From Marchantia polymorpha subsp. ruderalis (Eukaryota; Streptophyta; Marchantiopsida; Marchantiales; Marchantiaceae), in assembly GCA_037833965.1 (NCBI GenBank), contig AP031356.1:8516501-8580500 (forward strand): a stretch of DNA of 64,000 nucleotides, given 5' to 3'. Under the pieces are notes generated by a model, which was not told the origin of the DNA, did not search any database, and saw only the letters and a program-made list of their open reading frames with translations. Every line of letters starts with the position of its first letter. Position 1 is the stretch's first letter. Of this stretch, positions 2,869 to 39,714 are shown piece after piece. Both the position numbers and the translations under genes were made by a program.

Positions 2869-2904
2869 CGTAGTGCAGTGTAGTGCTAGTTAGGATTTAG
2901 AAGG

Positions 2905-2933
2905 TATAAAATAGTTCCAGGCGTTTTGCCTGG
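2905..2933 (+). promoter_or_regulatory. Element A promoter: TATA box and adjacent inverted repeat (5' LTR)
   Basis: TATAAAATA at 2905-2913, followed at 2917-2933 by an inverted repeat, CCAGGC-GTTTT-GCCTGG. The TATA box lies 36 bp after the LTR ORF stop, so the ORF is in U3 and the genomic RNA should start around 2930-2940. The same TATA-plus-dyad is present in all family LTRs that cover this stretch, with paired base changes in the dyad arms. Confidence 0.7.
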
Positions 2934-3879
2934 GGTTCTTTTCCATCAGAAGTGCAGATCAGGAACCCATTTCCTTTGCGTGTTTGTGTCCTTGAGTTCT
3001 GTCACCACGCACGAGGAGTTACAACTTAGCGTTCCGCATTTTGTAGCTGAAGGCCTTCGGCCGAATGTTCAGAGCTAGTACATTGGTTAGAGACTTGAGT
3101 AGTTCGGATCTGCACCTGCGGGTGACTGCCGATGCTCAGAGCCAGTGACTAGTTAGATACTTGAACAGTTTCGCCCCTACACCTTCGAGTGTTTCTTTCT
3201 GATTGTACTCCTTGGGATTTTTCCCCTGAATGCCAAAGTGAAGTTTTGCTACTTCGTGTAAGCCTTGGTTGTAAATTCAGGTTACGCTGCAGCAGGTGCC
3301 TTGAGGGTAACCCCTGTAGTATTTCTGGGAATGACAAGTGCCTGAGAATTCAAACTCTTCAATAGACTGTTGTTGTGTTACTGGAATGTTTCACAGTGAG
3401 TCCTTCAGTGCGGACCTGTGTTCTCTGCGCGTTTTGTGAGTTGAGAGTGTTGTTCACCGCGTAGGAGTGACTTCAATCCGAAGTAGGCAGTCCAAACCGG
3501 GTTTCCTACACTAGCAGCAAGCTAGTGGAAGTGTTGTAAAAGCCGGAGTTGGAAGTCACTGCCCGCAGCTTTGCCGAGTGTGCTCGTGAGGGACTTTCCC
3601 CCTGAAATCTTGAAGTAGAGGTCCTAACGGATCTCGGGGTTGTGTTTCTGTAGTTTCAGGTGTGTGTGTGTGTGTGTGTGGTACGCTGCACTGTGCGACC
3701 TCCGAGTGCGCTCCGAGTGGACACTTGCAGTATTTCTGGGAGTGACAGTTGCCTGAGAATTCAAACTCCTCAATAGTCTGTTAAAACGTGACACTTTGTA
3801 CCCTGTGTGTTCCTCTGTCCCTGTGGGTTCGACCTTTCTACCACTATATTGCAGTTTTAGCCTTTAGTGGGTTATTACA

Positions 3880-3919
3880 TAAGAAGCCGACAACTTCTTT
3901 TTGGCGCCGCTGCCGGGGA
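3880..3919 (+). other. LTR-PBS spacer hairpin and primer binding site of element A
   Basis: The primer site TGGCGCCGCTGCCGGGGA at 3902-3919 is complementary to the 3' end expected for plant tRNA-Asp (one difference from the common TGGCGCCGTTGCCGGGGA). It begins 22 nt after the LTR end rather than the usual 0-5 nt. The spacer can fold as AAGAAG-loop-CTTCTT. The same spacer follows the LTR end at 27723 (element B) and as a remnant at 43454. Confidence 0.85.
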
Positions 3920-3965: not shown

Positions 3966-6797
3966 ATGTCGACTGGGGCTGGCGGGAGCAATCTAAGTGC
4001 TAGGGCTGTCCGCAAGTTCCGACGAGATTCAGAGAAGGCCGTGGAAGAGACACGGCGTCAAAACAAGAAAACACCAAAAAGAGTACCTAAGCCTAGTTCG
4101 GCCGACATCCTTGGGGAACCTACCCCCGGCGACTCGGAACCAAACTTGGTGCTTTCAGTTCTACTAGATATTCCTTGCACGGACCCGCCTAGTGAAGTAG
4201 AACCGACCGCCCGAGGACCGTCGACAGACACACTGATGGCGGACGGACAAGCCAATGTGCGGCTACCTCAGCCGATTACTAAACATTCCTACCCGAAGTA
4301 CAAAGGAAGTGGGGATGACGACGATGCAGATTCATACATCAAGTTATTCGAGTCGGTGTCTATTGCCAATCGCGAGATCGCAGACGACGACCGACTAAGG
4401 ATCTTTCCAAGCCTTCTGCGGAAGAAAGCGAGGAGTTGGTATAATCACGAGAGCATCGATCCGACTGGGTTGACAACATGGGCCCAGCTGAAGGAGAAGT
4501 TCCTTCGTCGCTTTCGCGAGCTCGGCTACGACAGCCGGGTTTTGACGAAGTTACGTAATTTGCAGCGAGAGAAGAAGGAGAGTCTGCGTGACTACACTGA
4601 GAGATTTCTGGACCTCCTCGACAGAATACCGAAAACAGGACCAGGGTCCCCTTTCTCGGTACAACAAGCTGTGGATTGGTACGTGACCGGTTTAACTCGG
4701 GAGATGGAGACTTTTTGCCGACGCAGCAAGTGCGACACTATTGAGGATGTGATTGCATCGGCAGAAGCCTTCGAAACTTCCACTCTCAACCGAAGAGGGA
4801 GAGAGAGACGGGAGTCGAAGGAGCGCAAACCGAAAGGAGGGTGAAGACGGCGTAGAGGTACAACTCCGTCATCGGAGGAATCGTCTTCGGACGAGAACCG
4901 TTCTTCATCCGAAGAAGAGTAAACCTCATCGTCGGAGGAGGAGAAGAAGAGGAAGAAGCATGGGTCAACAAAGAAAAAGGGCATCCGACGAGTGACTACG
5001 GACAGAGCGCCGGGAGATATAGCTTCGAAGATGGAGACCCTGGTGAAGGACTTCGCCGATCTCAAGGTTCAAGTGGTAGGCGGGCATGATCGCAGAAAAT
5101 CACCCGGGAGAGTGCGAGCGAACTTATGGTGTACTACGTGCGGGGCGGTGGGACATGCAAACACCGAGTGCCTTACCACCCGGCCGTCATATCCAGTCAA
5201 CGCAGTAGAGTGGGCGCAACCGTACTATGGAGAGCACCCTCAGTACTATGGAGAGGCTAGCGAAGAGACAGCCTACGCCGTCCAGTCGGTGCCTACCCCT
5301 CCTGCAGTTTCAGCAATGCAAGTCCCACGATATATTCCGGTGGATCGGGCCACTACGGTACCTGTGAGGCGGAGAGCACCTCCAGGGACGTTTGACCCAC
5401 CGCCACCGCGAGCTTGTTATAATTGCGGGGAAGTTGGGCACTTCTCACCGCAGTGTCCCCATCCAAAAAGGCGAAACGATTATGCTCCGACATGTAGTAA
5501 TTGCAAGAAGGTCGGGCACACTGCGCCAGAGTGTGATCAGCCACCAGTCCCTCGGCCAGTGGTACGATTTGTGAACACTCCTGCCAAGGAGGACGTGCAA
5601 GTTAACCAGGTCGAAGTAGGTTCAGACGGGGATGGCGAAGACGAAGAATGGCCGGCTGAAGAGGTTATGTGCGCACGGGTCGAAACTCGTAGCTCCAAGA
5701 AATCCAAGGAGCAAGAGCGTGACACTCGCAAGCACGAACGGAGAACCGCCGACCGGACGGGAAAAGGAAAGGAGAAGACATCCAGCAAGTCCGACTCGCG
5801 ACCTGCTCGGAAGTCTTCGGCTACGCGGGAGGCACCAGCAGTGCGCCCCCAGACAGCAGTCGAGGACGAGCCAGTGCGCCTACTGAAACGGGACTATGCT
5901 CCGGATATCCGCAACGAGGTAACCAACCTGTTGAAGGAAGCGATCCGCACGCAAAAGGACCCACCGCGGCCAGACTTGACATCCTCCCTTGGGGCGAAGT
6001 TGGCAGCCACCGTGGAACCTCGCAGAGCGTCGCCGACCCCGGCGCCCCAACGCGCCCACTATGACTTGGTTGAAGATCTCGGGAGTCGAAAAGTGAACAT
6101 TACGTTCAAGCAGCTCTTGGAGGACAATAAGACGTATCGGAGAATGTTGATGCTTTCGCTACGGCATCCGCGGAAGCCGCGCGCATCCACATCCTCTCAA
6201 GTATATCAAGTGGAGAGCGAAGACCAAGGGCCACCCGAGATCGATGTGGAGATAGCAGGATGTTGTGTACGCAGAGTGCCAATCGACTCTGGATCAGGAG
6301 TCAACATAATGACGGAGGATACAGCGAGAGCCTTGGGGTTCAGTCAATACGAACCCTCGAAGCGTGTGTTGAGATTAGCGGATCAGACGCGGAGAATGCC
6401 TGCAGGTATGCTGCGCAATGTCAAGACAACCATCGGGGGTGCGGACTTTCGGTTGACATATATCATCCTTCAGCCGATGATGAAGCAGGGCTATGACGTT
6501 CTGCTCGGGCGACCATGGCTATATGGTGCACAAGTCAGATGTGATTGGCGAAGACATCGCCTTAAGTTTCCTCATCCTTCGGAACCGACCAAAACCATTA
6601 CGGTGCCCTGGAATAGGGTCAGGCACGAAGGAGAGACCCCATCGACAAGTGCAGGTTACACATCGGGCGAGGACAGTGAGTCGACCGCGCGATCGGATTC
6701 CAGTGGTACCGAATCCGATTACTTCGTGGGATTCGTTGCCTGCTGTTTGGTGGAAGAAGAAGAAGAGACGGAAGCTATTCAGCCGGAAGACGAATAG
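3966..6797 (+). pseudogene. gag-pro: gag-protease of element A, broken by two nonsense codons
   Basis: Starts at the ATG (MSTGAGG...) 46 nt after the primer site. In one reading frame it encodes: a retrotransposon gag domain (about residues 105-225, with YPKYKGSGDDDDADSYIKLF and the WYNHES...LKEKFLRRFRELGY region), a Ser/Glu/Lys-rich linker, three CCHC zinc knuckles (CTTCGAVGHANTEC, CYNCGEVGHFSPQC, CSNCKKVGHTAPEC at about 5138-5534), and an aspartic protease with catalytic DSGSG near 6286 and LLGRPWL near 6502. TGA at 4842 and a TAA near 4919, both in the linker, interrupt the frame; element B has sense codons there (its aligned residues are GGRRKRR and SSSEEEE), so these are mutations. The frame closes at the UAG at 6795-6797, a separate and conserved stop. 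Confidence 0.88.
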
Positions 6798-6803: not shown

Positions 6804-9638
6804 ACTGTGGGACTGGGAAGGAGTGAGACGAGTCACACTGAGGGCATTGTCGACCCTAGTGACTGTCATGAAGTACAACTCAGTCCCGGCAAGTGCTTGA
6901 AGGTATCAAGCGCAGTGAGAGGAGACGAGCTAAGGAAAGTACAGGCGTTCCTTAGCCACTATGTCGACGTCTTCGCCTGGAAGATCGAAGACATGAAGGG
7001 GATACCCGCACGATATGGGGAACACCGTATCGATTTACTGGACGACTCAGTACCCATACGACAGCGCCAGTATCGCCTCAACCCAAAGTACTCCTTGCTA
7101 GTGAAAGAGGAGATAGATAAGTACTTGAGCGCTGGTATTATTTATCCTGTGCTCAGCAGCGAGTGGGTGTCGCCGATTGTTATCATACCCAAGAAGTTGA
7201 CGGGTAAGATACGAGTGTGTCAGGATTTCCGGAAGTTGAATGCAGCAACACGCAAGGATCATCACCCGTTACCATTCACGGATGCCATTCTAGACCATGT
7301 CGCAGGACATGAATGTTATAGCTTCCTGGATGGGTTCTCAGGTTACAATCAGGTGTCTATCCGTGAACAGGACAAGGATAAAACTACGTTCACAACCGAC
7401 TGGGGAACTTACGCATACCACAAGATGCCCTTCGGTCTGTGCAACGCGCCTGCCACCTTTCAACGGATGATGACCAATATCTTTCAGGAACAACTGAGGA
7501 AGTTCCTGGAGATATTCATAGATGACTTCTGTGTCTTTGGGAAGCGGTCTGAACACCTAAGTCACTTGAAGCAGACCTTCGATAAATGTAGAGAGAGCAG
7601 TTTATCACTGCATCCCGAGAAGTGCTTTTTCTTCATGACTAGTGGGATCTTGTTGGGTCATCGGGTCTCGGCAGAAGGCATTGCGGTGGACATCGAGAAG
7701 GTCAAGGTTATACTCGAGCTTGAGCCACCCACGAATCTAAGAGAGCTGCGAGCATTCCTGGGTCATGTGGGCTACTACCGAAGATTCATACACATGTATG
7801 CAATACTAGCGGCGGACCTGACCAAGTTGTTGAAGAAGGACGAGCCTTATGCTTGGGGTGCGAACCAGCAGACAGCATTTGAAGCTCTGAAAGCGAAACT
7901 CACGACTGCTCCCGTACTAAGGAGTCCAGACTGGAATCGACCATTCCATGTTTACGTTGACACTTCGGCATTCGCCATCGGTGTAGTACTGAGTCAAAAG
8001 GATGACAACAAAAAGGACTACCCGATCTACTTCGCGAGCCGACAGCTGTCTCTAGCGGAGCGGAAGTACACCACGACGGAGAGAGAAGCGCTGGGGATGG
8101 TGTACTCCTGTAAAAAGTTTCGTCACTACTTAATCTGCTACGAGTTTGTGTTCCATGTGGACCACTACGCATTGCAACACCTAGTCAAGAAAGCCGACCT
8201 ATCCGGTCGGATCGCCAGGTGGGTGTTGTTACTACAAGAGTTCACCTACACAGTCCAGACCAGGAAAGGGGTGCACCACGAAAATGCGGATTACTTGTCC
8301 CGATTATGGACCCAGCCGACAGAGGAGGAATTGGTGGACGATTTTCCAGATGAAGAGTTATTTCAGTTGTCTGCAGGACATGAGTCCCGCTATGCCGACC
8401 TGTATCGATATCTGCTAACCCTCCAGTGCCCCGAGGGCATGGATTTGGAACAGCGAACTGTCTTTATTCATAAGGCAGGCCCGTATCAACTCCAGCAGGG
8501 GGTTTTGTTCAAGAAGATGGCGGATGAGCGCTTATGCAGATGCCTGGAGGAATCAGAGGTACCAAGAATAGTGAGTGCGATGCATACAGAGGAGGCGGGT
8601 GGACACTATGCCACCAGGAACACGGTCACAAAGATCCTAAACGCGGGGTATTGGTGGCCGACCATGTTTAAGGATGTTCTCGATTACATCCGCAAGTGCG
8701 ACAGTTGCCAGAGGACGGGGAGACTGACGCCTACGACACGCTGGCCTCTGACTCCCATCATGCCTCTAGCACCTTTCGAAAAGTGGGGTATTGACTTTGT
8801 AGGGCCGATACAACCAGTGACTAGAAGTACACGAAGGCGCTACATTCTGGTAGCAACGGACTACGCCACCAAAATGGTAGAGGCCAGAGCCACCAGAAGG
8901 GATGATGCTGCCACAGTGGCAGCATTCTTGTTTGAGTCAATCATCACACGCTACGGATGTCCCTTAGAACTAGTCAGCGACCGGGGCACGCATTTTCTGA
9001 ATCAGATCATCGAAGATCTGACACGGTATTTCCACATCAAGCACCGGAAGACTACTCCATACAATCCCAAGGCAAATGGACTGACGGAGAAGTCCAATGG
9101 GCTGCTGTGTAAAATACTACTCAAGGTCACGGTGAATCACGCTCACGACTGGGATACGAAGCTAGCAGCCGCTCTATGGGCGTACCGCACAGCTGAGAAG
9201 ATCACGACCAAACAGACACCATACTTTCTGGTGTATGGGCAACACCCGATCCTTCCAATCGAATTTGAAGTACCCACCCATCGAACGATGGATTTGCAGA
9301 GGATGGGCGCAGAGGAGAGTCAGCTCTACAGGTTACAGGAGGTCATGCTGCTGGATGAGCGGAGAAGAGACGCCGAAGATCGCACCAGGAAAATCCAGCT
9401 CCGCCGAAAGGAAAGATACGATAAAAAGATCAAACCGGTACTCCTGCGGGCAGGTGATTTGGCATTGCTCTACGACAGCAGGCATGCCAGATTCCCAGGC
9501 AAACTGCACCTAAGGTGGATGGGACCTTACAGGGTTGTCGAAGTCTTCCCGAATGGGTCCATCCAACTTGCGGACCTGGCCGGCGATTTGTTAGGCACCC
9601 GAGTGAACGGGTGGCGGTTGAAGAAATACCACATGTGA
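6798..9638 (+). CDS. pol: Pol of element A: reverse transcriptase, RNase H and integrase
   Basis: Intact frame continuing directly from the UAG at 6795 to TGA at 9636-9638; there is no ATG at the beginning, so it should be made as a readthrough extension of gag-pro. Residues counted from nt 6807: reverse transcriptase about 83-260 with FLDGFSGY and the FIDD catalytic motif (237-240); RNase H about 380-500 with Asp385, Glu427 and Asp452 in the expected places; integrase zinc-binding HHCC (His593, His600, Cys631, Cys634) and catalytic triad Asp663, Asp725, Glu761. It ends RVNGWRLKKYH, with no chromodomain noticed. All catalytic residues are present, so the enzyme portion looks functional although gag is broken in this copy. 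Confidence 0.92.
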   Translation, partial: QLTVGLGRSETSHTEGIVDPSDCHEVQLSPGKCLKVSSAVRGDELRKVQAFLSHYVDVFAWKIEDMKGIPARYGEHRIDLLDDSVPIRQRQYRLNPKYSLLVKEEIDKYLSAGIIYPVLSSEWVSPIVIIPKKLTGKIRVCQDFRKLNAATRKDHHPLPFTDAILDHVAGHECYSFLDGFSGYNQVSIREQDKDKTTFTTDWGTYAYHKMPFGLCNAPATFQRMMTNIFQEQLRKFLEIFIDDFCVFGKRSEHLSHLKQTFDKCRESSLSLHPEKCFFFMTSGILLGHRVSAEGIAVDIEKVKVILELEPPTNLRELRAFLGHVGYYRRFIHMYAILAADLTKLLKKDEPYAWGANQQTAFEALKAKLTTAPVLRSPDWNRPFHVYVDTSAFAIGVVLSQKDDNKKDYPIYFASRQLSLAERKYTTTEREALGMVYSCKKFRHYLICYEFVFHVDHYALQHLVKKADLSGRIARWVLLLQEFTYTVQTRKGVHHENADYLSRLWTQPTEEELVDDFPDEELFQLSAGHESRYADLYRYLLTLQCPEGMDLEQRTVFIHKAGPYQLQQGVLFKKMADERLCRCLEESEVPRIVSAMHTEEAGGHYATRNTVTKILNAGYWWPTMFKDVLDYIRKCDSCQRTGRLTPTTRWPLTPIMPLAPFEKWGIDFVGPIQPVTRSTRRRYILVATDYATKMVEARATRRDDAATVAAFLFESIITRYGCPLELVSDRGTHFLNQIIEDLTRYFHIKHRKTTPYNPKANGLTEKSNGLLCKILLKVTVNHAHDWDTKLAAALWAYRTAEKITTKQTPYFLVYGQHPILPIEFEVPTHRTMDLQRMGAEESQLYRLQEVMLLDERRRDAEDRTRKIQLRRKERYDKKIKPVLLRAGDLALLYDSRHARFPGKLHLRWMGPYRVVEVFPNGSIQLADLAGDLLGTRVNGWRLKKYHM

Positions 9639-9660: not shown

Positions 9661-9675
9661 TTGAGGAGGGGGGCA
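9661..9675 (+). other. Polypurine tract of element A
   Basis: A purine run (TTGAGGAGGGGGGCA) lies immediately before the 3' LTR start TGTGGTACC at 9676; it would prime plus-strand DNA synthesis. Confidence 0.8.
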
Positions 9676-10922
9676 TGTGGTACCCCACTTTTGGCAATTT
9701 TGAGAAAATTAAAACATTTTTTGGAAAACTATACCCTGGCAGCATTGTAAATAGCCTTCGGTACATCAAAACAGAGTGAATCCGGAAGATCGCGGGGATT
9801 CTCGAGGGATCTTGTAGAATCTGGGATTTGGGGTGCCGCAGCAAGCACAGGCACCACCCTCCCTGCGAGCTCCGCAGTTAGGATCTCTACGGCGCAAGGC
9901 GCAAAACCCGCCTTCGGAGGTTGCGGGCGCGGCTGTAGGGAAACCCCCGTAATTAGGTAAACCCTCGGGCGCCTTGACCAAGTTAGGGTTCGGTTGGAAA
10001 GAGCTCGACGCGCTGATTCTAACGAGCCCAAGAACGCTTGGAACGGACGAGGACTTAGGGAGTTATGGCTACTGGAAGAAACGGAGGCGGTCGCCTACGG
10101 CGGAAGGAGTTCGCCACCGGCGCGAATTCCGCCTACGCGGAAGGGGGGTTCAAGTTTTGTCCTATGCGCGGACGAAGGCGTTCGCCGGTGCACAGGCGAA
10201 GTAGGGTTAGGGAAGGCGCGAAGTCCGCCTACGCACAGGCGTTCGCCTGTGCACAGGCACTTCGGCGTCGGCGGGAAATCCGCCTTGGGCCCTAGAAATG
10301 CGCCTTGTGAGGTAGAAAGTGTACGGCGCCTTCCGCGCCAGCGCAGCGCAGCGTACGTCGGAAGAGCCACCAGAGTAATCCAATAGGTACGGACCGTGCG
10401 GACGGCACGGGTGGATGCGCTCTTGGACGGACGGAGTTGCGGCGGCGGAAGCGCCGACGGAGAGACAAGGAACGGACAGACTGGACGGAGACGGCTGACC
10501 ACGGTCAACGCCTTCCGCGCCAGCGCAGCGCCGCGGACGGAGTTCGCCTGCGCACAGGCGAACGCCTGTCCACAGGAGGATGTTCAAGTTCCGCGCCGGC
10601 GGAGAATCCGCCGAGGCCCCTGCCTGCGCACAGGCAGGAGTTGAATTTTTGTCCGACATGCGGACGCACGCGTCAAGGCAGAAGGAGATTGGCCGAAGGG
10701 CGGTACGAACAAGTGTACCGCGCAAGGCGGAAAACTCGCCTTCGGCGCTACGCCCCCATGTCCGCAGGGTGACACGCTCGCGGAGTTCAAATCCGCCAAT
10801 TCGAGCGTGAGAGTTTAATCGACGACGGCGGAGCGTGAAGCCGCGCGTGAGAGCGAAGACCGTTCCAGCGTACAGCCGGCGCGGCCATCAAGTGAGACGT
10901 TCTTCACGACCAAGAGACGACC

Positions 10923-13900
10923 ATGACCTTCGACCGGGCGGCGGAGAGCGTCCCATTCTTGAATTCGCGATTCCAATCTCTTGTGCGCGCTGCGCGCATC
11001 CATCTGCTGGCTGCGGACCATTCTCGTCGTCGTCGCACAGGAGATTTCTTGTTGATTGAGGGAGAAGTGAGTGCGCGTGATTTGGAATTGAGAGCGATTA
11101 GAGTTTGCCGAGAGAGAAAGAAACGCGGACAGTGCGGAAGTAGAATGAGCGGGCGAGCGAACCCCAGGAACGCAATGACGAGACCGAGCAGATTGCGGAT
11201 GGTGCCACTTCGCCTGCCGCAGAACGGGCTGCGCGCTTTCGAGGAGCGCTTAATAGCAAGAAAGCTCGATTTCTTGCTATGGGGATGGAATTACATCTGC
11301 GCGAATATGGTGCGCGAGTGGCTAGAGCCACAGGGACCACCCTCGCGCGGATTGCGTCCGCATGTTGACCGGTGGACAGTCCAAGATTGGGCGCAGGCGT
11401 TGGGAAGATGTGCTGGCATGCCAGGGCATCTCCTTTTCGACAGCGAGAGCATCAAGGTGACCAAGCAAGAAGAGGCGCAATTTGTGGAGCTGTTCAAGAC
11501 CGGGAGGTCTACCAAGAATGGATACAGGACCCGTGATTACAAAGATCGATTTCGCCGGACTTTGTCCGCGGCGCTGATGCAATTACTGCAGCCGCACCGC
11601 GCCTGCTACATCACATTGTGGCAGGTCTCTTTTGTGGAGTGCGTCATCGAGGGAACTCCAATTCACTGGGCGAGCATCCTGCACAGGGTGATGCGACAGC
11701 ACGCGTTTGAGGAGAAGGGGGGAACGCTAAACCATCTTTCTCCTTTCCTCATCAATTTTTATCGACAGCGGAATTGTTTGACAGCGGCGGAGCTTGAACA
11801 TTTTCCGCCATTGTCCATCGACCATCCCGGGAAGTATGTGCGGGAGAACGAGGTCGACACTGATGCGGAGGAGTCACCGACTTCTACCCCATCAAGACGG
11901 AGGGACGAAGGGAGACACACCCCTGCGGCGCGAGTGCCGCGGAAGCGGCGATGGAGGGAAGAGTCCGAAGAGGAGCAGCATCAAGAACCCTCTGCTCCCA
12001 TTCGACCGCGGCCGCTGTGCGAGCCATACAGCCGGCCGAAGCAGAAGGCACGCAGACTGGTGTTACCAGCTGACAGTGCAGACACGGCGACGATTGCGAC
12101 GGAGATAGGAAGTGCGTCGCCAGAGAGGCGAGAGGAAGCGCGGACGACCGCAGGAGCGACGGGCCACGCTGCAACCTCGTCGGGAGAGAGGTCGCCTACG
12201 GGCCAAGGGCCTCCGGAGTTACCACGTGCGATGCGGACAGATGTTCCGTTTGCGCACAGGCGAACCTCCGCGGACGGACGAGCCTCCGCGGACCGGCGAA
12301 CACAAGTGGACGTGGATCTACGCTTACGCGTGGGAAGGAGCAGTCCGCCTGTGCACAGGTCGCCTGTGCACAGAACACCTCCACACGTGCCGCCTGTGCA
12401 CAGGCAAGAATCACCCCCGTTCCAACGTAGGAAGGGGAAGGAGCCGGCGGAAGAACCGCCTACGAGACACCGGCCCTCGGGGCCAGACCCTCCGGCGCAC
12501 CACGCGCCGCAATTTGCGCCTTCGGCGCCAGGGCCTTCGAGCCGAGGAGATACGAGCAGAGAGCGTGCGGAGGCCGCACCATCGGCGGGAAGTCCGCCGA
12601 TAGATGCGCCTTCGGCGGTAGGGCCTATAGGCCAAGGAACATCGGGCGTGCGGCCCCCGGCCATGTCGCCTTCGGCGATAGATGTCCGCGGCGCTACGCC
12701 TGCGGCGGACAAGGCGCCGGCAAATGCGCCTGCGCACGGGCCGGGCACAGCCCCCACGGACCGATCAAGGGAGCAGCAGACGGAGGAGCGGAGTGACTGT
12801 CCGCGGGATGAAATTTCGATGCGCGATGCGCAATCAAACCCCGCGCAGTCACCCTCCGCTCGATCGCCTTCGGCGGCGGACGACGGAGGCAGAGAGGACG
12901 CGGTAGGCAATCAACAAGCAAGCGATGGGGATGCCGCACGGGTACATTCGCCTTCCGCCTTAGACATTTTGGCGACGAGCAGCGAGGCTGCAGCCGTGCC
13001 TTCGCAGGCAGCACACGTCGAGGATGTGCAGCCCCACTCGGGGCAGTCGCCGACGCAATCAATGGCGACTGAAATTCTCCACTCGGATGATGACGACGGA
13101 GGCTCCACGGAAGAAATGTCAGGAGCAGAAGACACCGAGGAGGAGGAGGAGGAAATTGTTGGAGCGCCGGCGGCGGCGCTCTCTGAGCAGGTGATTCCGT
13201 TGCTGCGGTACTTGGATCGCAAGGTCGATAAATACGCCGACCCACTCCAGCCGGGATCTTACATCGAGTTAGTGCGCAGGCGGACTCGCACTAAAGTCCA
13301 CACCAGCAAGCTATTAGCTAGAGTGGACCAAGAGTTGAAGGACTTGAAGGAGAAGCATGCGTGCTTGTGGGGTCAGTACAAGCTTAATCAGAAATTCTAC
13401 AAGCACTCCGAGAAGATGAAGGATGAGAAACTGGGCGAGCTCACCAAGGAGCAGGTGAAGGTCAAGGAAGCACTCAACTCTGAGCAGGCCCAGAATCGGA
13501 TTTTGTCAGAGGAGCTCGTGCGACAGACGCGGTTGTTGGAACAATGTCAGCTCGCACGGCAGGCGGATGAAGAGTTAATCCGCAGGTTACAGTCAGAGTG
13601 TGGCGAATTGAGAGCGCAACGTGCTGAAGCCGAATCGCAATTAGTGATGATTGAAGAGGATCGCAGGAAGGAGGCAGATCGCACGAAGGTGGAGACGGCG
13701 AGGCGAGTCGCCCACTGTCTCAAGGGCTACGCCCACTGGGAAGTGAAGGCGCAGGAGAAACTCACACTGCGTGAGTTTGAATTGCGCGCAGCCGGGTTGT
13801 TGTCAGGCGACAGTAGGAGTCGGCGGAAGGTAGCAAAGAAGCTCGATGCCTTTCTGTCGAAGGCACAGGATACCATGTCCGCCCTCGAAGGGGAGGTGTC

Positions 13901-14042
13901 CGCGGCGTTGCAGAGGTTGGGACTGCGCAGTCGAGCGGAAGATTGGCAGGGTAGGGAGTTAGTGCGCGGCAGCCGGCCGCGCAGGAGACGCAGTACAGGT
14001 TCCGCGGAGTGTAGTGTAGCGTGGTTCCGTGCAGGCGTGTAG
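10923..14042 (+). CDS. LTR-encoded coiled-coil protein (intact, 1,039 aa)
   Basis: ATG at 10923 (MTFDRAAESV...) to TAG at 14040-14042; the same MTFD start is recognisable in the relics at 20560 and 62087 (minus strand), which supports it. Residues 1-320: a conserved, mostly helical-looking block containing LRMVPLRLPQNGLRAFEERL, FLLWGWNYICANMVREW, LFDSESIKV and a YITLWQVSFVE...MRQHAFEE...LSPFLINFYR region. About 320-720: Pro/Ser/Arg/Ala-rich low complexity with PVHR repeats. About 725-745: acidic. About 797-939: charged, heptad-like, likely coiled coil. It sits in U3, upstream of the element's own TATA box, so it could be translated from a separate transcript or from genomic RNA ending in the 3' LTR. 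No known domain was recognised; a distant tie to plant 'transposon-like' ORFs is possible but unsupported. Function unknown. Confidence 0.82.
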   Translation: MTFDRAAESVPFLNSRFQSLVRAARIHLLAADHSRRRRTGDFLLIEGEVSARDLELRAIRVCRERKKRGQCGSRMSGRANPRNAMTRPSRLRMVPLRLPQNGLRAFEERLIARKLDFLLWGWNYICANMVREWLEPQGPPSRGLRPHVDRWTVQDWAQALGRCAGMPGHLLFDSESIKVTKQEEAQFVELFKTGRSTKNGYRTRDYKDRFRRTLSAALMQLLQPHRACYITLWQVSFVECVIEGTPIHWASILHRVMRQHAFEEKGGTLNHLSPFLINFYRQRNCLTAAELEHFPPLSIDHPGKYVRENEVDTDAEESPTSTPSRRRDEGRHTPAARVPRKRRWREESEEEQHQEPSAPIRPRPLCEPYSRPKQKARRLVLPADSADTATIATEIGSASPERREEARTTAGATGHAATSSGERSPTGQGPPELPRAMRTDVPFAHRRTSADGRASADRRTQVDVDLRLRVGRSSPPVHRSPVHRTPPHVPPVHRQESPPFQRRKGKEPAEEPPTRHRPSGPDPPAHHAPQFAPSAPGPSSRGDTSRERAEAAPSAGSPPIDAPSAVGPIGQGTSGVRPPAMSPSAIDVRGATPAADKAPANAPAHGPGTAPTDRSREQQTEERSDCPRDEISMRDAQSNPAQSPSARSPSAADDGGREDAVGNQQASDGDAARVHSPSALDILATSSEAAAVPSQAAHVEDVQPHSGQSPTQSMATEILHSDDDDGGSTEEMSGAEDTEEEEEEIVGAPAAALSEQVIPLLRYLDRKVDKYADPLQPGSYIELVRRRTRTKVHTSKLLARVDQELKDLKEKHACLWGQYKLNQKFYKHSEKMKDEKLGELTKEQVKVKEALNSEQAQNRILSEELVRQTRLLEQCQLARQADEELIRRLQSECGELRAQRAEAESQLVMIEEDRRKEADRTKVETARRVAHCLKGYAHWEVKAQEKLTLREFELRAAGLLSGDSRSRRKVAKKLDAFLSKAQDTMSALEGEVSAALQRLGLRSRAEDWQGRELVRGSRPRRRRSTGSAECSVAWFRAGV

Positions 14043-14078
14043 CGTAGTGCAGTGTGGTGCTAGGTAGGACTTAGAAGG

Positions 14079-14107
14079 TATAAAATAGTTCCAGGCGTTT
14101 TGCCTGG
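14079..14107 (+). promoter_or_regulatory. TATA box and inverted repeat in 3' LTR of element A
   Basis: TATAAAATA at 14079-14087 followed by CCAGGC-GTTTT-GCCTGG, the same arrangement as in the 5' LTR. In the 3' copy it would mark the U3/R boundary of genomic RNA. Confidence 0.65.
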
Positions 14108-15052
14108 GGTTCTTTCCCATCAGAAGTGCAGATCAGGAACCCATTTCCTTTGCGTGTTTGTGTCCTTGAGTTCTGTCACCACGCACGAGGAGTTACAACT
14201 TAGCGTTCCGCATTTTGTAGCTGAAGGCCTTCGGCCGAATGTTCAGAGCTAGTCCATTGGTTAGAGACTTGAGTAGTTCGGATCTGCACCTGCGGGTGAC
14301 TGCCGATGCTCAGAGCCAGTGACTAGTTAGATACTTGAACAGTTTCGCCCCTACACCTTCGAGTGTTTCTTTCTGATTGTACTCCTTTGGGATTTTTCCC
14401 CTGAATGCCAAAGTGAAGTTTTGCTACTTCGTGTAAGCCTTGGTTGTAAATTCAGGTTACGCTGCAGCAGGTGCCTTGAGGGTAACCCCTGTAGTATTTC
14501 TGGGAATGACAAGTGCCTGAGAATTCAAACTCTTCAATAGACTGTTGTTGTGTTACTGGAATGTTTCACAGTGAGTCCTTCAGTGCGGACCTGTGTTCTC
14601 TGCGCGTTTTGTGAGTTGAGAGTGTTGTTCACCGCGTATGAGTGACTTCGATCCGAAGTAGGCAGTCCAAACCGGGTTTCCTACGCTAGCAGCAAGCTAG
14701 TGGAAGTGTTGTAAAAGCCGCAGTTGGAAGTCACTACCCGCAGCTTCGCTGAGTGTACTCTTGAGAGACTTTCCCCCTGAAATCTTGAAGTAGAGGTCCT
14801 AACGGATCTTTGGGTTGTGTTTCTGTAGTTTCAGGTGTGTGTGTGTGTGTGTGTTACGCTGCACTGTGCGACCTCCGAGTGCGCTCCGAGTGGACACTTG
14901 CAGTATTTCTGGGAGTGACAGTCGCCTGAGAATTCAAACTCCTCAATAGTCTGTTAAAACGTGACACTTTGTACCCTGTGTGTTCCTCTGTCCCTGTGGG
15001 TTCGACCTTTCTACCACTATATTGCAGTTTTAGCCTTTAGTGGGTTATTACA

Positions 15053-16521: not shown

Positions 16522-19500
16522 TGTAATAACCCACTTAAGGCTAAAACTGCAATATAGTGGTAGAAAGGTCGAATCCACAGGGACAGAGGAACACACAGGG
16601 TACAAAGTGTCACATTTAACAGACTATTGAGGAGTTTGAATTCTCAGGCGACTGTCACTCCCAGAAATACTGCAAGTGTCTACTCGGAGCGCACTCGGAG
16701 GTCGCACAATGCAGCGTAACACACACACACACACCTGAAACTACAGAATCACAACCCAGAGATCCGTTAGGACCTCTACTCAAGATTTCAGGGGGAAGGT
16801 CTCTCAAGAGTACACTCAGCGAAGCTGCAGGTAGTGACTCCCAACTCCGGCTTTTACAACACTTCCACTAGCTTGCTGCTAGCGTAGGAAATCCGGTTTG
16901 GACTGCCTACTTCGGATCGAAGTCACTCATACGCGGTGAACAACACTCTCAACTCACAAAACGCGCAGAGAACACAAGTCTGCACAGAAGGACTCACTGA
17001 GAAACATTCCAGTAACACACCATAACAGTCTGTTGAAGAGTTTGAATTCTTAGGCACTTGTCATTCCCAGAAATACTACAGGGGTTACCCCAAAGGCACC
17101 TGCTGCAGCGTAACTTGAATTTACAACCAAGGCTTACACGAAGTAGCAAAACTTCACTTTGGCATTTAGGGGAAAAATCCCGAATGAGTACAATCAGGAA
17201 CAAACACTCGAAGGTGTCGGGGCGAAACTATTCAAGTATCTAACTAGTCACTGGCTCTAAGCATCGGCAATCACCCGCAGGTGTAGATCCGAACTACTCA
17301 AGTCTCTAACCAATGTACTAGCTCTGAACATTCGGCCGAAGGCCTTCAGCTATACAATGCGGAACGCCAAGGTGTAGCTCCTCTTGCGCGGTGACAGAAG
17401 TAAGGACACAAACACGTAGAGAAAATGAGTTCCTGATCTGCACTTCTGAAATTGGAAAAATCACAAGGCAAGACGCCTTGAACTACTTTATACCTTCTAA
17501 ATCCTAACTAGCACTACACTGCACTACGCTACACGCCGGCACGGAACCACGCTACACTACACTCCGCGGAACCTGTGCTTCGCCTCCTGTGCGACGGACT
17601 GCCGCGCACTAACTCCCTACCCTGCCAGTCTTCCGCTCGACTGCGCAGTCCCAAACGCTGCAACGCCGCGGACACCTCCGCCTCGAGGGTGGACATGGTA
17701 TCCCGCGCCTTCGACAGAAAGGAATCTAACTTCTTCGCCACCTTCCGCCGACTCCTACTGTCACCTAACAACAACCGGGCTGCACGAAGCTCCAACCCAC
17801 GCAGTGTGAGTTTCTCCTGCGCCGCCACTTCCCATTGGGCGTAGCCCTTGAGACAGTGGGCGACTGGCCTCGCCATCTCCTCCTTCGTGCGATCTGCCTC
17901 TTGCCTGCGATCATCTTCAATTACCACCAACTGCGATTCGGCCACCGCACGCTAAGCTCTCAATTCCCCGCACTCCGACTGTAGCCTGCGGATTAAATCC
18001 TCATCCGCCTGTCGTGCGAGCTGACACTCCGCTAACAACCGCGTCTGTCGCACGAGCTCCTCTGACAGAACCTGATTCCGATTTTTCTCAGAAATCAGTT
18101 CTTCCGTGGTCTTCACCACATCCCTGGTGAGCTCTTCCAGTCTCGCCTGCTTCAATGCATCGTAGTGGGTGTGCGACTTCCGCACGAGACTATACTGTCC
18201 CCACAAACACGCATGCTTCTCCCGTAAATCCTTGAGTTCACGGTCCACCCTAGCTAGTAGCTTGCTGGTGTGGACTTTAGTGCGAGTCCGCCTGCGCACT
18301 AACTCGATGTAGGACCCCGACTGGAGTGGATCGGCGTATTTATCAAATTTGCGATCCAAGTACCTCAGCAGAGGTATTACCTGCTCAGAGAGCGCCGCCG
18401 CCGGCGCTCCAACAATTTCCTCCTCCTCCTCCTCGGTGTCTCCCGATCCCGACATTGCTTCTGTGGAGCCTCCTTCGTCATCATCCGAGGGAAGGATTTC
18501 GGTCGCCATTGATTGCGTTGGCGACTGACCCGAGTGGGGCTGCGGGTTGTCTACGGGGGCTGCCGCCGATGGCACTCCTGCAGCTTCACTGCTCCCCGCT
18601 AAAATGTCCAAGGCAGTGGGTGACTGGGGCCATGCTACATCCCCATCATCCGCCTGTCGCTCGTCGATCGTGTTCTCTTCGCCGCCGACGTCCGCCGCCG
18701 AAGGCGATCGAGCGGAATGTGTCTGTGCGGGGTGTAATTGCGCATCGCGCATCCGAATGTCGTCCCGCGGATAGACAATCCGCTCTTCCGTTAGGTCCTG
18801 CGTGAGGGCTGCGTCTGGCCTGCGCGTAGGCGCAAGTACCAGCGCCTGGTCCGCCGCAGGCGACAAAGCCGGAGGCCGCTCGCCCGATGTCCCTGGCCCC
18901 GAAGGCCCTACCGCCGAAGGCGCATCTGCCGACGGATTACCCGCCGAAGGTGCGGTCTCCGCACGCTCTCTGCTCAAAACTCGTTGACCCGAAGGCCCTG
19001 GCGCCCAAGGCGCAAATCGCGGCGCGTTATACGCCGGAGGGTCTGGTCCCGAAGGCCCTTGACCCGAAGGCGGATCTTCCGCCGGCTCCTTCTCCTTCCT
19101 ACGTTGTATCGGGGGTGAATCCTGCCTACTCGTAGGCGGCCGCCTGTGCGTAGGCGAACTTTCTCTGCCTACGCGTAGGCGGAGGTCCACGTCCGCTTGA
19201 GGTCGCTTTTCCGCTGAAACTCGCCTGTGCGTAGGCGGAACACTCGTCCACATCGCACGTGGTAACTCCGGAGGCCCTTGGCCCGAAGGCCGCCTCTCGT
19301 CCGTCGGAGGTGTAGCGTGGTCCGCCACCCCTGCGGACGTCCGCGCTCTCTCGATCCTCTCCGGCGACGCACTTCCCTTCTCCATGGCGATCGTCGCCGT
19401 GTCCGTGCTGCTGGCTGGTAACACAAGCCTGCACGCCTTCTGCTTCGGTTGGCTGCACACTTCGTGCAGTGGCCGCTGTCGTATGGGAGCAGTGGGTTCT

Positions 19501-21815
19501 CGATGCTGCTCCTCCTCTGACTCCTCTCTCCATCGACGCTTCCGCGGCACTCTTGCTGCGGGTGTGCTTCTTCCCTCGTCCCGCCGTGTCGGCGGAGTAG
19601 AAGCTGGTGAGTCCTCTGCATCGGTGTCGACCTTGTTATCCCGCACATACTTCCCGGGATGGTCGACGGACAATGGCGGAAAGCGAGCGAGCTCCGTCGC
19701 GGTCAAACAATTCCTCTGCCGATAGAAATTGATCAAGAAAGGGGAGAGGTGATTGAGAGTTTCCCCCTTCTCCTCGAATGCGTGCTGTCGCATCACTCTG
19801 TGCAGGATGCTCGCCCAGTGAACTGGAGCTCCCTCCAAGATGAGCTCCACCAAAGAAACCTGCCACAAGGTGATGTAGGAGGTGCGGTGTGGCTGCAGCA
19901 ATTGCAGCAGCGCTACCGCTAAAGTTTGGCGGAAGCGATCTTTGTAGTCGCGGGTCTTGTACCCATTCTTGGTAGACCTCTCCCGTTTGAACAATTCCAC
20001 AAATTGCGCCTCGTCCTGCTTCGACACCTTGACGCTCTCACTATCAAAGAGTAGGTACCCGTCGATGCCGGCACACCTCCCCAATGCTTGCGCCCAATCT
20101 TGGACGGTCCACCGATCGACATGCGGACGAATCCGTGCGTAGGTGGTCGCTGTGGTTCCAGCCATTCGCGCACCATGTCCACACAAATGTAATTCCATCC
20201 CCACAGCAAGAAATCGAGCTTTCTTGCTATCAGCCGCTCCTCGTAGGCACGCAACCCGTTCTGTGGAAGCCGGAGCGGCAGCATCGGCAATCTGTTCAGC
20301 TTCGACATTGCGTTCTTGAAATTAGCTTGCTCGCTAACTCCCTCTCTGCTCCGCTCGAGCTCCTTGCTCCCTCTGCAAACTCTAATCTCACTCAATTCCA
20401 AATCGCGCGCACTCAATTCTCTCTCAATCAACAAGTAATCCTCCGCACGGCGATGTCTGGAATGTTTAACAACTAGCAGGTGGACGCGCGCAGCTCGCAC
20501 TAGAAAATGAAATCGCGAATTCAAGAATGGGGCGCCCTCCGTCTCCTGGTCGAAGGTCATGGTCGGCTCTCGGTCGTGAGGGTCGAATCACATGATGGCC
20601 GTGCCGGCTCCGCGCTAAAACGGTCTCCTCTCTCACGCGCGGCTTCACGCTCTGCCAACGCCGATTTAACTCACACGCTCGAATTGGCAAATTTTAAGTC
20701 CGCTAACGTACTACGCAGCGGACATGGGTGCGCAGCGCCGAAGGCGGATTTCTTGCCTTGCGCGCTACACTCGTTCGTACCACTCTTCGGCCAATCCTCC
20801 CTCCGCCGAAGGCGTTCGTCTGCGCATCGGACAAAAGTTGAACTCCCTTCTGCGTAGGCGGAATCCCCGGCGGAATCTCCGCCGGCGTGGAACTTCATCT
20901 GCCTGTGCGTAGGCGCTTGCCTACGCGTAGGCGAATTCCGTCTGCGCTGCTGCGCTGGCGCCGAAGGCGTTGACCGCGGTCAACAGGCTCCGTCCAGTCT
21001 GTCCATTTCTTGCCTCTCCGTCGGCGCTCTTGTCGCCGTAACTCCGTCCGACCAAAGGCGCATTTATCCGTTCCGTCCGTACAGTTCGTACGGTCCGTAC
21101 GGATTTTACCACTCCGGTGGGTCCTCGCCCGTCCGCGCTGCTGTGCTGGCGCGGAAGGCGCCGTACAATTTCTAACCCCAAAGGCGCATTTCTAGGGCCG
21201 AAGGCGGATTTCCCGCTGACGCCGAAACTCGCCTGTGCGTAGGCGAACTTCGCTCGTCCGCCTGGGCAGAGGTTTCCTCGCCTACGCGTAGGCGACATTC
21301 GCGACGGACATCGCGCCTACGTCAAACCCTATTTCGCCTACGCGTAGGCGAACTGCCTTCGTCCGCGCATAGGACAAACTTTCCTCGCCTACTCGTAGGC
21401 GAGAAGCTGAGTATCTTGCAACCTTCATAACACCCGGAGTCCTCATCCGTTCGTGGCGTTCTTGGGCTCGTTAGAATCAGCGCGTTGAGCTCTTTCCAAC
21501 AAGACCCTAACCAAGTCGAGGCGTTTGGGAATTGACCAAATTCTGAAGGATTCCTCTAGTGCCGAAGGCGCAGCGCCGAAGGCGGATTTCGCGCCTTGCG
21601 CCAAAGGGGTTATTCCTTTAGAGCCCGCATGTAGGGTGGTGTCCGTCCCCGACGTTGCACCCAACTCCTGGATTCTACGAGTTCTCTTGAGAATCTCTGC
21701 GATCTTTCGATTTCACTCTGTTTTGATGCACCGAAGGCTATTTGCACTGCTGCCGCGGTACAGTTTTCCAAAAATGTTTTAATTTCCTCAAAAATACCAA
21801 AAGTGGGGTACCACA
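16522..21815 (-). mobile_element. Solo giant LTR (minus strand), 5294 bp, TSD CGTCC
   Basis: On the minus strand it begins TGTGGTACCCCAC at 21815 and ends TTATTACA at 16522. It is flanked by CGTCC at 16517-16521 and 21816-21820, inside element B's pol between residues DD and AVPVRQ. No internal region is present, so it is a solo LTR left by recombination between the two LTRs of a full element. It keeps the LTR ORF region (17529-20560), the TATA/dyad (CAAGGC-AAGAC-GCCTTG at 17464-17480 as read on the plus strand) and dense palindromes. Confidence 0.92.
17529..20560 (-). pseudogene. LTR ORF in solo LTR, broken by a frameshift and a stop
   Basis: Homologous to the 1,039-aa LTR protein over its whole length: start MTFDQETEGAPFLNSRF at 20560, conserved FLLWGWNYICVDMVREWLEP block, Pro/Arg-rich middle, acidic TEEEEEEIVG, coiled coil, and the C-terminus SAECSVAWFRAGV ending at 17529. 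The frame shifts near 20130-20145 (just after PPTHGF) and a stop at about 17950 interrupts GELRA/AESQ. Two lesions in about 3 kb of otherwise open frame, with substitutions concentrated in the low-complexity middle, suggest a fairly recent loss of coding. Confidence 0.85.
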
Positions 21816-28139: not shown

Positions 28140-29120
28140 CATTAGTTAGAGACTAGTTCAACGCGTCTTGCCTTGGGATCTTTCCCAACATCAGAAGTGC
28201 AGATCAGGAACTCATTTTCTCTGTGTGTTTGTGTCCTTAGTTCTGTCACCACGCAAGAGAAGCTACAACTTGGCGTTCTGCATTTTGTAGCTGAAGACCT
28301 TCGGCCGAATGTTCACCGCTAGTACATTAGTTAGAGACTTGAGTAGTTCGGATCTACACCTGCGGGTGATTGCCGATGCTCAGAGCCAGTGACTAGATAG
28401 ATACTTGAATAGTTTTGCCCCTACACCCTCGAGTGATTGTTCCTGATTGTACTCCTTCGGGATTTTTCCCCTGAATGCCAAAGTGAAGTTTTGCTACTTC
28501 GTGTAAGCCTTGGTTGTAAATTCAGGTTACGCTGCAGCAGGTGCCTTCAGGGTAACCCCTGTAGTATTTTTGGGAATGACAAGTGCCTAAGAATTCAAAC
28601 TCTTCAATAGACTGTTATGGTGTGTTACTGGAATGTTTCTCAGTGAGTCCTTCAGTGCGGACCTGTGTTCTCTGCGCGTTTTGTGAGTTGAGAGTGTTGT
28701 TCACCGCGTATGAGTGACTTTGATCCGAAGTAGGCAGTCCAAACCGGGTTTCCTACGCTAGCAGCAAGCTAGTGGAAGTGTTGTAAAAGCCGGAGTTGGG
28801 AGTCACTACCCGCAGCTTCGCTGAGTGTACTCTTGAGAGACCTTCCCCCTGAAATCTTGAGTAGAGGTCCTAACGGATCTCTGGGTTGTGTTTCTGTAGT
28901 TTCAGGTGTGTGTGTGTGTGTGTTACGCTGCACTGTGCGACCTCCGAGTGCGCTCCGAGTGAACACTTGCAGTATTTCTGGGAGTGACAGTCGCCTGAGA
29001 ATTCAAACTCCTCAATAGTCTGTTAAACGTGACACTTTGTATCCTGTGTGTTCCTCTGTCCCTGTGGGTTCGACCTTTCTACCACTATATTGCAGTTTTA
29101 GCCTTTAGTGGGTTATTACA
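28140..29120 (+). repeat. Truncated plus-strand LTR (R/U5 end) inside element B's 5' LTR
   Basis: Contains the LTR tail from the GCGTCTTGCCTTGGG dyad remnant through the TG microsatellite (about 28909-28922) to TTATTACA at 29120. The left end at about 28140 is not a natural LTR terminus: two pieces of R sequence are fused there (ATTAGTTAGAGACT joined to AGTTCAACGCG). Confidence 0.8.
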
Positions 29121-30015
29121 GGAGTGGAAGTCAGAGAGTCCTCCGCGTCGGTGTCGACTTCGTTATCCCGCACATACCTCCCGGGATTATCGACTGTCAA
29201 TGGCGGAAATTGAATACGCTCGGTCGCGGTTAAGCAGCCCATCGACCGTAAAAGTTTATCAAGAAGGGGGAGAGGTGATTGAGCGTTCCTCCCCGCTCCT
29301 CGAACGCATGTTGTCGCATTACCCTATGCAAGATACGCGACCTGTGAACTGGAGCTCCGGCCAATGTGAGCTCCACGAAGGACACTTGCCAAGAAGTGAT
29401 GTAAGTAGTGCGGTGTGGCTGCAAGAGTTGCAGCAGTGCCATCGCTACGGTTCTGCAGAAACGATCTCTGTCCGTCCCCGGTCTCCGTCCGTCTCTGTAG
29501 TCCCCGGTCCTGTACCCGTTCTTGGTGGACTTCTCGCGCTTGAACAATTCCACAAAGTAGGCTTCTTCCGCCTTCGACACCTTGACGCTCTCACTGTCGA
29601 AGAGGAGGAACCCGTCCTCGCCTGCACACCTTCCCAATGCTTGTCCCCAATCGTGGACATTCCAACGATCTACGTGCGGACGGAATCCGCGCGTAGGTTA
29701 CTGTCTCTCGCTCAGCCATTCACGCACCATGTCTCCGCACACGTACTTCCATCCCCACAGCAAGAAATCGAGTTTCCTCGCAATCAGCCGGTACTGAAAA
29801 GCACGCAACCCAATCTGCGGAAGCTTGAGTGGAACCATCCGCAGCTTAATCGACGTCAACATCGCGTTCTTGAAATTGGATTTCGCAAACTTCTCTCTTC
29901 TATGCTCAAACCTCCTGCCCGCGGCTCTGATTCCTCTACAAACTCTAATCTCTCTCAATTCTCTCTTCTCGCTTCCGACCTCGAGTTCGCCGCGGTGGAG
30001 CGTACGCTCCGACAA
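29121..30015 (-). pseudogene. LTR ORF remnant (N-terminal part) in element B's 5' LTR
   Basis: Minus-strand similarity to residues from about 50 to 320 of the LTR protein: RELREIRVCRG, NFKNAMLTSIKLRMVPLKLPQIGLRAF, RKLDFLLWGWKYVCGDMVREWL, LFDSESVKVSKAEEAYFVELFK, YITSWQVSFVELTLAGAPVH, LSPFLINFYG. Frameshifts (near 29700 and 29640) and in-frame indels break it, and it stops at the inserted LTR at 29120. The closest relative in the window is the copy at 58528, not element A's. Confidence 0.8.
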
Positions 30016-34930: not shown

Positions 34931-34939
34931 AAGATTTCA

Positions 34940-39706: not shown

Positions 39707-39714
39707 TTCCAACT

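What the first reader, a model, noticed from the sequence alone, without database searches (positions are those of the whole stretch)
10923..14042. A ~1,039-aa protein encoded inside the LTR (U3) of a plant Ty3/gypsy family
Seen: both LTRs of element A have the ORF open (955+ and 1,039 codons), and at least five more LTR copies in the window carry recognisable versions. LTR boundaries are certain because solo LTRs with perfect TSDs share them. The element's TATA box is downstream of the ORF, so the ORF is in U3 and is present in genomic RNA only through the 3' LTR. Known parallel: the mouse mammary tumour virus sag gene lies in U3. Plant LTR retrotransposons with extra ORFs normally have them in the internal region. 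Inference: a family-specific accessory protein with a conserved N-terminal block and coiled coil, possibly regulating transcription or silencing from the LTR. A protein present in every solo LTR would also spread independently of gag-pol.
Basis: partly seen in the sequence, partly recalled or inferred. Interest (0 to 1): 0.88.

Follow-up and report, generated by a model that had tools for sequence, protein, structure and literature searches.

The report
Protein gene inside a retrotransposon's LTRs
A large liverwort (Marchantia) jumping-gene family carries a whole extra protein gene inside its repeated ends, where normally only switches sit, and sequence comparison shows that evolution has kept this protein working, though what it does is unknown.

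Summary
The window is from Marchantia polymorpha. Element A is a Ty3/gypsy retrotransposon with 5.4-kb LTRs. ORF 10923-14042 (1,039 aa) lies wholly in U3, 36 nt before a TATA box; the 5' LTR carries a 1,045-aa version. It is not compositional: 0 stops against 36.6 expected, 13-28 stops in the antisense frames.

The refutation test was run and passed. Copies differ mainly at third codon positions, only inside the ORF, also without CpG sites. dN/dS is 0.26-0.30 against eight subfamily loci at about 50% protein identity. Of 23 assessable ORF copies among near relatives, 18 are full length. U3 placement before the same TATA/R/U5 block recurs in diverged subfamilies and probably in a second branch.

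No Pfam, PDB or fold match was found; all named relatives listed are from M. polymorpha. Most likely it is a nuclear coiled-coil accessory protein made from its own U3 promoter; function and expression are inferred, not shown. Solo LTRs keep the gene but cannot spread it alone. Gene in U3: near certain. Regulator: plausible. No transcript data were available.

The parts
1..3879 (+). 5' LTR of element A (its first 1,516 bp lie left of the window)
1..2868 (+). U3 ORF of the 5' LTR, 1,045 aa in all (starts left of the window)
3902..3919 (+). primer-binding-site-like TGGCGCCGCTGCCGGGGA (tRNA type recalled, not tested)
3966..4844 (+). gag (Retrotrans_gag, Ty3_capsid)
4992..6797 (+). zinc knuckle and aspartic protease ORF
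6807..9638 (+). RT, RNase H, integrase ORF
9663..9673 (+). polypurine tract GAGGAGGGGGG just before the 3' LTR
   Evidence: the 75 bp before the LTR recur directly before an LTR start in 10 of the other 20 loci
9676..15052 (+). 3' LTR of element A, 5,377 bp
10726..10922 (+). U3 leader before the ORF, conserved across copies A-D; candidate promoter or 5' UTR
10923..14042 (+). U3-encoded ORF, 1,039 aa (N block about aa 80-310, low-complexity middle 311-735, coiled-coil-like C-terminus 736-1039)
14079..14088 (+). TATA box of the element promoter; the equivalent in subfamily loci L031, L032 and L036 is TATAAAGTAG, also after the ORF stop
14091..14107 (+). inverted repeat CCAGGCGTTTTGCCTGG just after the TATA box; similar repeat in L031, L032, L036
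14108..15052 (+). R and U5 (border not mapped); most conserved part of the LTR against L032 and L034 (83-93%)
16522..21815 (-). solo LTR B, 5,294 bp, target duplication GGACG, apparently inserted in another element's pol; ORF pieces 20560-20129 and 20132-17532, frame broken
60979..62088 (-). LTR copy C, first 370 codons of the ORF, no stop, no indel
58528..60113 (+). LTR copy D (LTR start 57329), N-terminal half of the ORF with breaks
29120..29988 (-). LTR fragment E, N-block piece
31052..31606 (+). LTR fragment F, C-terminal piece
42140..42427 (+). LTR fragment G, last 96 codons, followed by R-U5

Best explanation
The LTRs of a large, still young Ty3/gypsy family of Marchantia polymorpha contain a real protein-coding accessory gene that fills most of U3. 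Shown by sequence: the gene lies between the LTR start and the element's TATA box; it has been maintained by selection on its protein product through divergence to about 50% identity; the arrangement recurs in diverged subfamilies. Inferred: the gene is transcribed from its own promoter in the 1.25 kb of U3 in front of it (a conserved leader of about 200 nt ends at the ATG), as a subgenomic mRNA ending in the R region of the same LTR; so 5' LTR, 3' LTR and solo LTR could each express it. Inferred with less certainty: the product is a nuclear, self-associating (coiled-coil) factor that acts on the element's own LTR, chromatin or RNA, working like U3-encoded regulators of some retroviruses. Step estimates: real gene in U3 0.97; own U3 promoter 0.5; nuclear regulator of the element 0.4.
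For: Third-position excess inside the ORF in 4 of 4 window copies tested (B, C, D, G; with CpG sites removed B .130/.104/.243, C .101/.063/.222, D .171/.135/.346, G .134/.015/.250; p 1e-3 to 2e-14), while the upstream stretch (B, C, D) and the downstream stretch (B, C, G) show no comparable excess; the same in L032 and L036 (p 1.5e-11 and 5e-11). Copy C: no indel in about 1.1 kb of ORF, 35 in its aligned flanks, where overlapping alignments may be counted twice. dN/dS 0.14-0.42 between P0001 and the window copies, 0.26-0.30 against 8 of 8 subfamily loci at dS 1.5-1.8. 18 of 23 assessable near-copy ORFs full length, 1034-1050 aa. TATA and inverted repeat follow the ORF stop in L031, L032, L036, the three loci printed. 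Leader before the ATG: mean column identity 86% over A-D, although D is at dS about 1.0 from A. NLS-like PRKRRW and RPKQKAR at aa 339 and 371, similar motifs in 52 and 39 of 163 family proteins, many of them fragments; no membrane segment (maximum 19-residue hydropathy 1.14).
Against: No transcript or protein evidence could be examined. No fold or domain: 0 Pfam families for P0001 at E<=1, no consistent hit among 44 members, AlphaFold2 N block pLDDT 36.6 and 49.7, no PDB match. Copies B and D are decayed: 14 and 22 indels in the ORF, only 3 of each a multiple of three. The middle third is weakly constrained, near or above 1 in some close pairs, and close pairs within L031-L038 reach 0.83 overall. 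Constraint is weaker than on gag (0.05, dS saturated). NLS and coiled coil are motif-level only; the heptad score is modest (0.67). The leader has no TATA box and its conservation beyond neutral is modest, so the promoter is a guess; it could equally be a 5' UTR or a splice-acceptor region.
Confidence: 0.4

Rival explanations
1. The protein is made not from a U3 promoter but from a spliced element RNA that starts at the TATA box of the 5' LTR and joins a leader to the ORF in the 3' LTR, as retroviral env, nef and sag messages do (recalled).
For: In a full-length element the genomic RNA holds the ORF once, in its 3' LTR (anatomy). A possible acceptor AG precedes the ATG and the stretch around it is conserved in A-D.
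Against: No donor/acceptor pair was tested; the pre-ATG sequence of L031, L032 and L036 looks different. Splicing alone does not predict conservation of some 200 nt before the ATG.
Confidence: 0.3
2. The protein is a structural or replication helper (gag-like, RNA-binding or env/movement-like), not a regulator of LTR activity.
For: Extra ORFs of plant gypsy elements have been discussed as env-like or as helpers of replication (PMC7264820, parts 1-2 of 3 read). No function is shown here.
Against: No membrane segment; no gag, zinc-knuckle or capsid family among the 19 Pfam families hit by 44 members.
Confidence: 0.25
3. The frame is open only because of base composition or low-complexity sequence; not a gene.
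For: GC-rich; the middle third is low-complexity (P, S, A rich) and weakly constrained.
Against: 0 versus 36.6 stops, antisense frames closed; phase-specific substitutions bounded by the ORF and robust to CpG removal; dN/dS 0.26-0.30 across subfamilies.
Confidence: 0.02
4. The ORF is a passenger: an unrelated gene or transposon inserted in one LTR lineage and amplified by hitch-hiking.
For: No homolog outside this family was found, so a foreign origin long ago is possible (word-based search, capped candidate lists).
Against: Present upstream of the same promoter/U5 block in subfamilies at about 50% protein identity, probably also in a second branch at 36-43% in the N block, with purifying selection between subfamilies.
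Confidence: 0.05

Closest known systems
U3-encoded accessory genes of retroviruses (MMTV sag; partly HIV nef and foamy virus tas/bel) - recalled; sag papers seen in a search listing only
   Same: A protein gene lying in U3, so present in both LTRs and once in genomic RNA through the 3' LTR.
   Different: No sequence or domain relation found; no membrane segment as a superantigen would have; here the gene is about 1,000 codons, in a plant Ty3/gypsy element, and ends just before the TATA box.
Extra ORFs (eORF/aORF) of plant Ty3/gypsy elements: Retand, Grande gene23, RIRE2, Ogre, Athila (PMC7264820 parts 1-2 of 3 read; PMC6317226 and PMC11963269 passages)
   Same: Accessory ORF of unknown function in a plant gypsy element; Grande gene23 is described as a nuclear protein with its own promoter; a Retand figure legend lists SMC, Mis12 and mitotic-checkpoint domain matches.
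   Different: Those are described upstream or downstream of gag-pol in the internal region, often antisense; none of their named domains (PF04195, PF10536, PF03078) is among the hits of 44 members here; this one is sense and inside the LTR.
Retrosat2 / RIRE3 / RIRE8 ORF0 of rice (PMC3485330, passages)
   Same: Gypsy family with very long LTRs and an extra ORF.
   Different: ORF0 is upstream of gag-pol; it is not described as inside the LTR in the passages seen.

Membership tests
Ty3/gypsy LTR retrotransposon | Direct LTRs starting TG and ending CA, PBS-like site after 5' LTR, PPT before 3' LTR | tested here: met
Ty3/gypsy LTR retrotransposon | Pfam gag, protease, RT, RNase H, integrase in that order | tested here: met
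Ty3/gypsy LTR retrotransposon | 5-bp target duplication | tested here: met
   solo LTRs B, L012, L027, L028 and the pair L014/L015; element A itself lacks one
Plant eORF families (PF04195 Transposase_28, PF10536 plant mobile domain, PF03078 Athila ORF-1) | Match to the domain | tested here: not met
   none among the 19 families hit at E<=10 by 44 members; HMMER filters drop most weak matches
PF20167 (Transposase_32), considered by resemblance | Match to the domain | tested here: inconclusive
   0 matches in the genome, but the control rang nowhere; also not among one search hits
U3-encoded retroviral accessory gene (works like) | Selected ORF wholly inside U3 of both LTRs | tested here: met
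MMTV sag (member of) | Membrane-anchored superantigen (recalled) | tested here: not met
   no hydrophobic segment; no Pfam match
U3-encoded transcription regulator (works like foamy virus tas) | Product acts on the LTR promoter | not testable with these tools
   needs reporter and binding assays

The most novel reading that the evidence does not exclude
Each LTR, including every solo LTR with an open frame, is a self-contained expression unit for an element-encoded nuclear regulator (activator or anti-silencing factor) of that LTR family. Solo LTRs left by recombination would then be a dispersed pool of trans-acting genes that sets the activity of the whole family, and the U3 gene has persisted through at least two ancient branches of it.
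Probability: 0.22. Interest if true: 0.87.

Novelty: new variant of a known kind. Interest (0 to 1): 0.68.

Why it matters
LTRs are treated as regulatory sequence, and dating of plant elements by LTR divergence assumes that they evolve neutrally. Here more than half of each LTR is a gene under protein-level selection, doubled in every full element and kept by solo LTRs. It gives plants a counterpart of the retroviral U3 genes, in a laboratory plant where RNA, localisation and LTR reporters can be tested directly. It also warns that dating with such LTRs must treat coding sites apart where LTRs have recombined.

Tried and rejected
Compositional artefact: rejected. CpG decay as the cause of the third-position excess: rejected by removing CpG sites. 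Known domain: none; the weak CENP-K, Extensin and similar hits are read as coiled coil or low complexity. PF20167, suggested by a remembered motif pattern: no match, control silent. AlphaFold2 of the N block with 9 and then 44 sequences stayed below useful confidence, so the Foldseek list (best E 3.3) was not interpreted. Idea that LTR B belongs to the pol next to it: rejected; B has its own target duplication, with element pieces on both sides. Idea that the second branch (P0096, P0102) might hold the ORF in the internal region: not supported; 0 of 5 loci show a match to A's gag or pol in 8 kb and 4 of 5 show U5-like sequence after the ORF, but no LTR start was recognised in front of those ORFs. 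Rfam, tRNA and sigma-70/terminator scans gave nothing that bears on the gene beyond the inverted repeat at 14091-14107. A four-codon upstream ORF in the leader of copies A-D may be chance and was not pursued. The lineage within Ty3/gypsy was not determined: no reference sequences at hand.
Full report
Source. The window lies in a 241,466,482-base genome of 9 contigs. The published Tak-2 assembly has 9 sequences and 241,484,302 bp (PMC13078153, passages). So the host is M. polymorpha, probably Tak-2 or a near relative (inference).

Anatomy. Element A has a 5' LTR that starts 1,516 bp left of the window and ends at 3879, a PBS-like site at 3902-3919, gag 3966-4844, zinc knuckle/protease 4992-6797, RT-RNase H-integrase 6807-9638, a purine tract at 9663-9673 and a 3' LTR 9676-15052. 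No chromodomain was reported by Pfam. The ORF 10923-14042 lies wholly inside the LTR. The TATA box at 14079-14088 follows its stop by 36 nt, so the ORF is in U3. The 5' LTR carries a 1,045-aa version. Element A lacks a target duplication and its two LTR ORFs differ by 24.5 synonymous and 23.5 nonsynonymous changes (dN/dS 0.31), a coding-like pattern not expected from neutral decay after insertion; A is best read as a recombinant. This does not affect the LTR borders, which are shared by solo LTR B (GGACG duplication), by L012, L027 and L028 (GGCAG, ACTTC, TCTAG), and by the pair L014/L015, which has an ATCAT duplication and two LTRs differing at 1 of 5,408 positions, a very recent insertion.

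Abundance and integrity. The first 1,001 bp of the ORF gave 41 matches, 40 of them at 99-100% identity over the whole query; only 40 of 2,524 candidates were scored, so this is a lower bound. I fetched 20 stretches around such matches plus the two LTRs of A. They hold 24 ORF starts; one runs off the stretch; 18 of the other 23 are full length (1034-1050 aa), the rest stop at 304, 360, 373, 373 and 678. This sample is biased to close, young copies by its query. Variants among the 18: 82 synonymous, 97 nonsynonymous, pN/pS 0.39; singletons 0.45, shared 0.32. A search with the diverged relative P0005 gave 116 matches (74 of 10,736 candidates scored), with open frames of 573-958 aa at 49-66% identity.

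Selection. Against P0001 the window copies give dN/dS 0.343 and 0.339 (two pieces of B), 0.236 (C), 0.253 and 0.423 (D), 0.144 and 0.284 (E), 0.152 (F), 0.139 (G). One further hit at 44498-43962, 25% identical with undefined dS, was left out as probable chance coiled coil. Phase test: differences by codon position in the ORF are .137/.130/.263 (B).113/.082/.253 (C).183/.163/.363 (D).137/.084/.295 (G). Upstream U3 gives .190/.212/.180 (B).137/.170/.160 (C).206/.253/.209 (D); downstream R-U5 gives .075/.045/.048 (B).136/.060/.127 (C).081/.083/.129 (G). E and F were not in this test. With all CpG sites removed the ORF excess stays, p 2.1e-14 (B), 1.3e-8 (C), 2.2e-12 (D), 1.0e-3 (G), 1.5e-11 (L032), 5.1e-11 (L036). 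Indels: C has none in the ORF and 35 in its aligned flanks, but B has 14 and D 22 in the ORF, only 3 of each a multiple of three, so those two copies are decayed; overlapping alignments may be counted twice in all these numbers. Eight subfamily loci (L031-L038; ORFs 477-855 aa) give dN/dS 0.26-0.30 against P0001 at dS 1.5-1.8 (8 of 8); N block 0.20-0.30, middle 0.31-0.41, C-terminus 0.15-0.27 (7 of 8; L035 is too short). Results the other way: close pairs within L031-L038 range up to 0.83 overall and above 1 in the middle, so the middle is nearly free and recent decay is mixed in. As yardstick, gag gives 0.05 (dS 4.6, saturated) and one protease-ORF pair 0.19; the other four gag-pol comparisons had undefined dS. 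The U3 ORF is under clear but weaker constraint. The estimator is Nei-Gojobori, not a codon-model likelihood.

Position is conserved. Among L031-L038 the LTR start is recognised in 5 of 8, sequence of the LTR end in 6 of 8 (to the last base in 4: L031, L032, L034, L036), both in 3 of 8 (L032, L034, L035), and a PBS-like start of the internal region follows in L032. In the three loci printed (L031, L032, L036) a TATAAAGTAG and a similar inverted repeat follow the ORF stop. In 150-nt bins between A and L032 or L034, identity is 0.12-0.67 in the upstream U3, about 0.43-0.67 in the N block, 0.09-0.5 in most of the middle and 0.83-0.93 in R-U5. A second branch (P0096, P0102 and others; about 36-43% identical to P0001 in the N block) was looked at in five loci: U5-like sequence follows the ORF in 4 of 5 (not L043), the TATA-region block directly follows the ORF in L040 and L041 (and follows an opposite-strand copy in L042), and no match to A's gag or pol lies in the 8 kb of any of the five. 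LTR starts were not recognised in front of those ORFs, so U3 placement in that branch is probable, not shown.

Leader. Over four copies (A, B, C, D) the stretch from 10600 into the first codons of the ORF aligns with 86% mean column identity, with blocks such as CGCCTTCGGCGCT and GCCAATTCGAGCGTG and the start in CGACCATGAC. D differs from A at 36% of third codon positions, yet the bin 10726-10875 is 79% identical and 10576-10725 is 65%. The excess over neutral is real-looking but modest. It suggests a promoter and/or 5' UTR. There is no TATA box in it.

Protein. No Pfam family, no PDB relative (best E 0.18, Max protein), no confident model (pLDDT 36.6 with 9 sequences; 49.7 with 44) and no fold match. 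The N block is best conserved together with the C-terminus; the middle is rich in P, S and A; the C-terminus is rich in E, R and L with a moderate heptad pattern (best window 0.67); there is no membrane segment; NLS-like motifs lie at aa 339 and 371. P0050 is named Mp_8g15400, a gene model of M. polymorpha, so some members are annotated as host genes.

How it most likely works. Shown: a selected protein gene in U3. Inferred: expression from a promoter in U3 and action of a nuclear coiled-coil protein on the element. The nearest described plant case in mode is Grande gene23, a nuclear protein with its own promoter in the internal region (PMC7264820, parts 1-2 of 3 read). The nearest case in place is retroviral U3 genes (recalled). 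Splicing from the element promoter is the main rival for expression.

Literature. Seven searches of the open-access library listed no paper whose title or abstract start reports a gene inside the LTR of a plant retrotransposon; only the top 20 rows were shown where more papers matched, subscription papers are not held, and most listed papers were not opened. The large plant survey PMC6317226 searched ORFs of at least 250 codons upstream and downstream of the polyprotein; 'Marchantia' does not occur in its main text and the passages seen do not mention ORFs inside LTRs. It could still hold such cases unremarked.

Verdict. Observation confirmed; interpretation right about the gene and its place, unproved about function, not supported about independent spread.

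Noticed in passing
window 1-3879 and 9676-15052: The two LTRs of element A differ in a coding-like way and the element has no target duplication, so it is probably a recombinant of two insertions.
   Followed up: partly
window 48075-52226 (+): 1,383-aa ORF with leucine-rich repeats, an LRRNT_2 domain and 26 repeat copies at an even 69-bp spacing; a receptor-like-protein type gene with recently expanded repeats.
   Followed up: no
window 34059-41358: A second LTR element (minus strand) with identical 300-bp repeat segments 7,000 bp apart and one open gag-pol frame of 1,590 aa; apparently young.
   Followed up: no
window 10758-10772 (leader): A four-codon upstream ORF (ATG to stop) is kept in copies A, B, C and D before the U3 ORF; possible translational control, or chance.
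   Followed up: no
L026 (G000:C6:25301001-25309000): An LTR with the PPT side before it and the PBS side after it, as in a tandem element sharing one LTR.
   Followed up: no
P0050 / Mp_8g15400: A named M. polymorpha gene model belongs to this transposon protein family; whether it is a plain copy or a domesticated gene was not tested.
   Followed up: no
window 10152-10640: Upstream U3 holds short GC-rich inverted repeats such as GCCTGTGCACAGGC at 10245; possible binding sites, untested.
   Followed up: no
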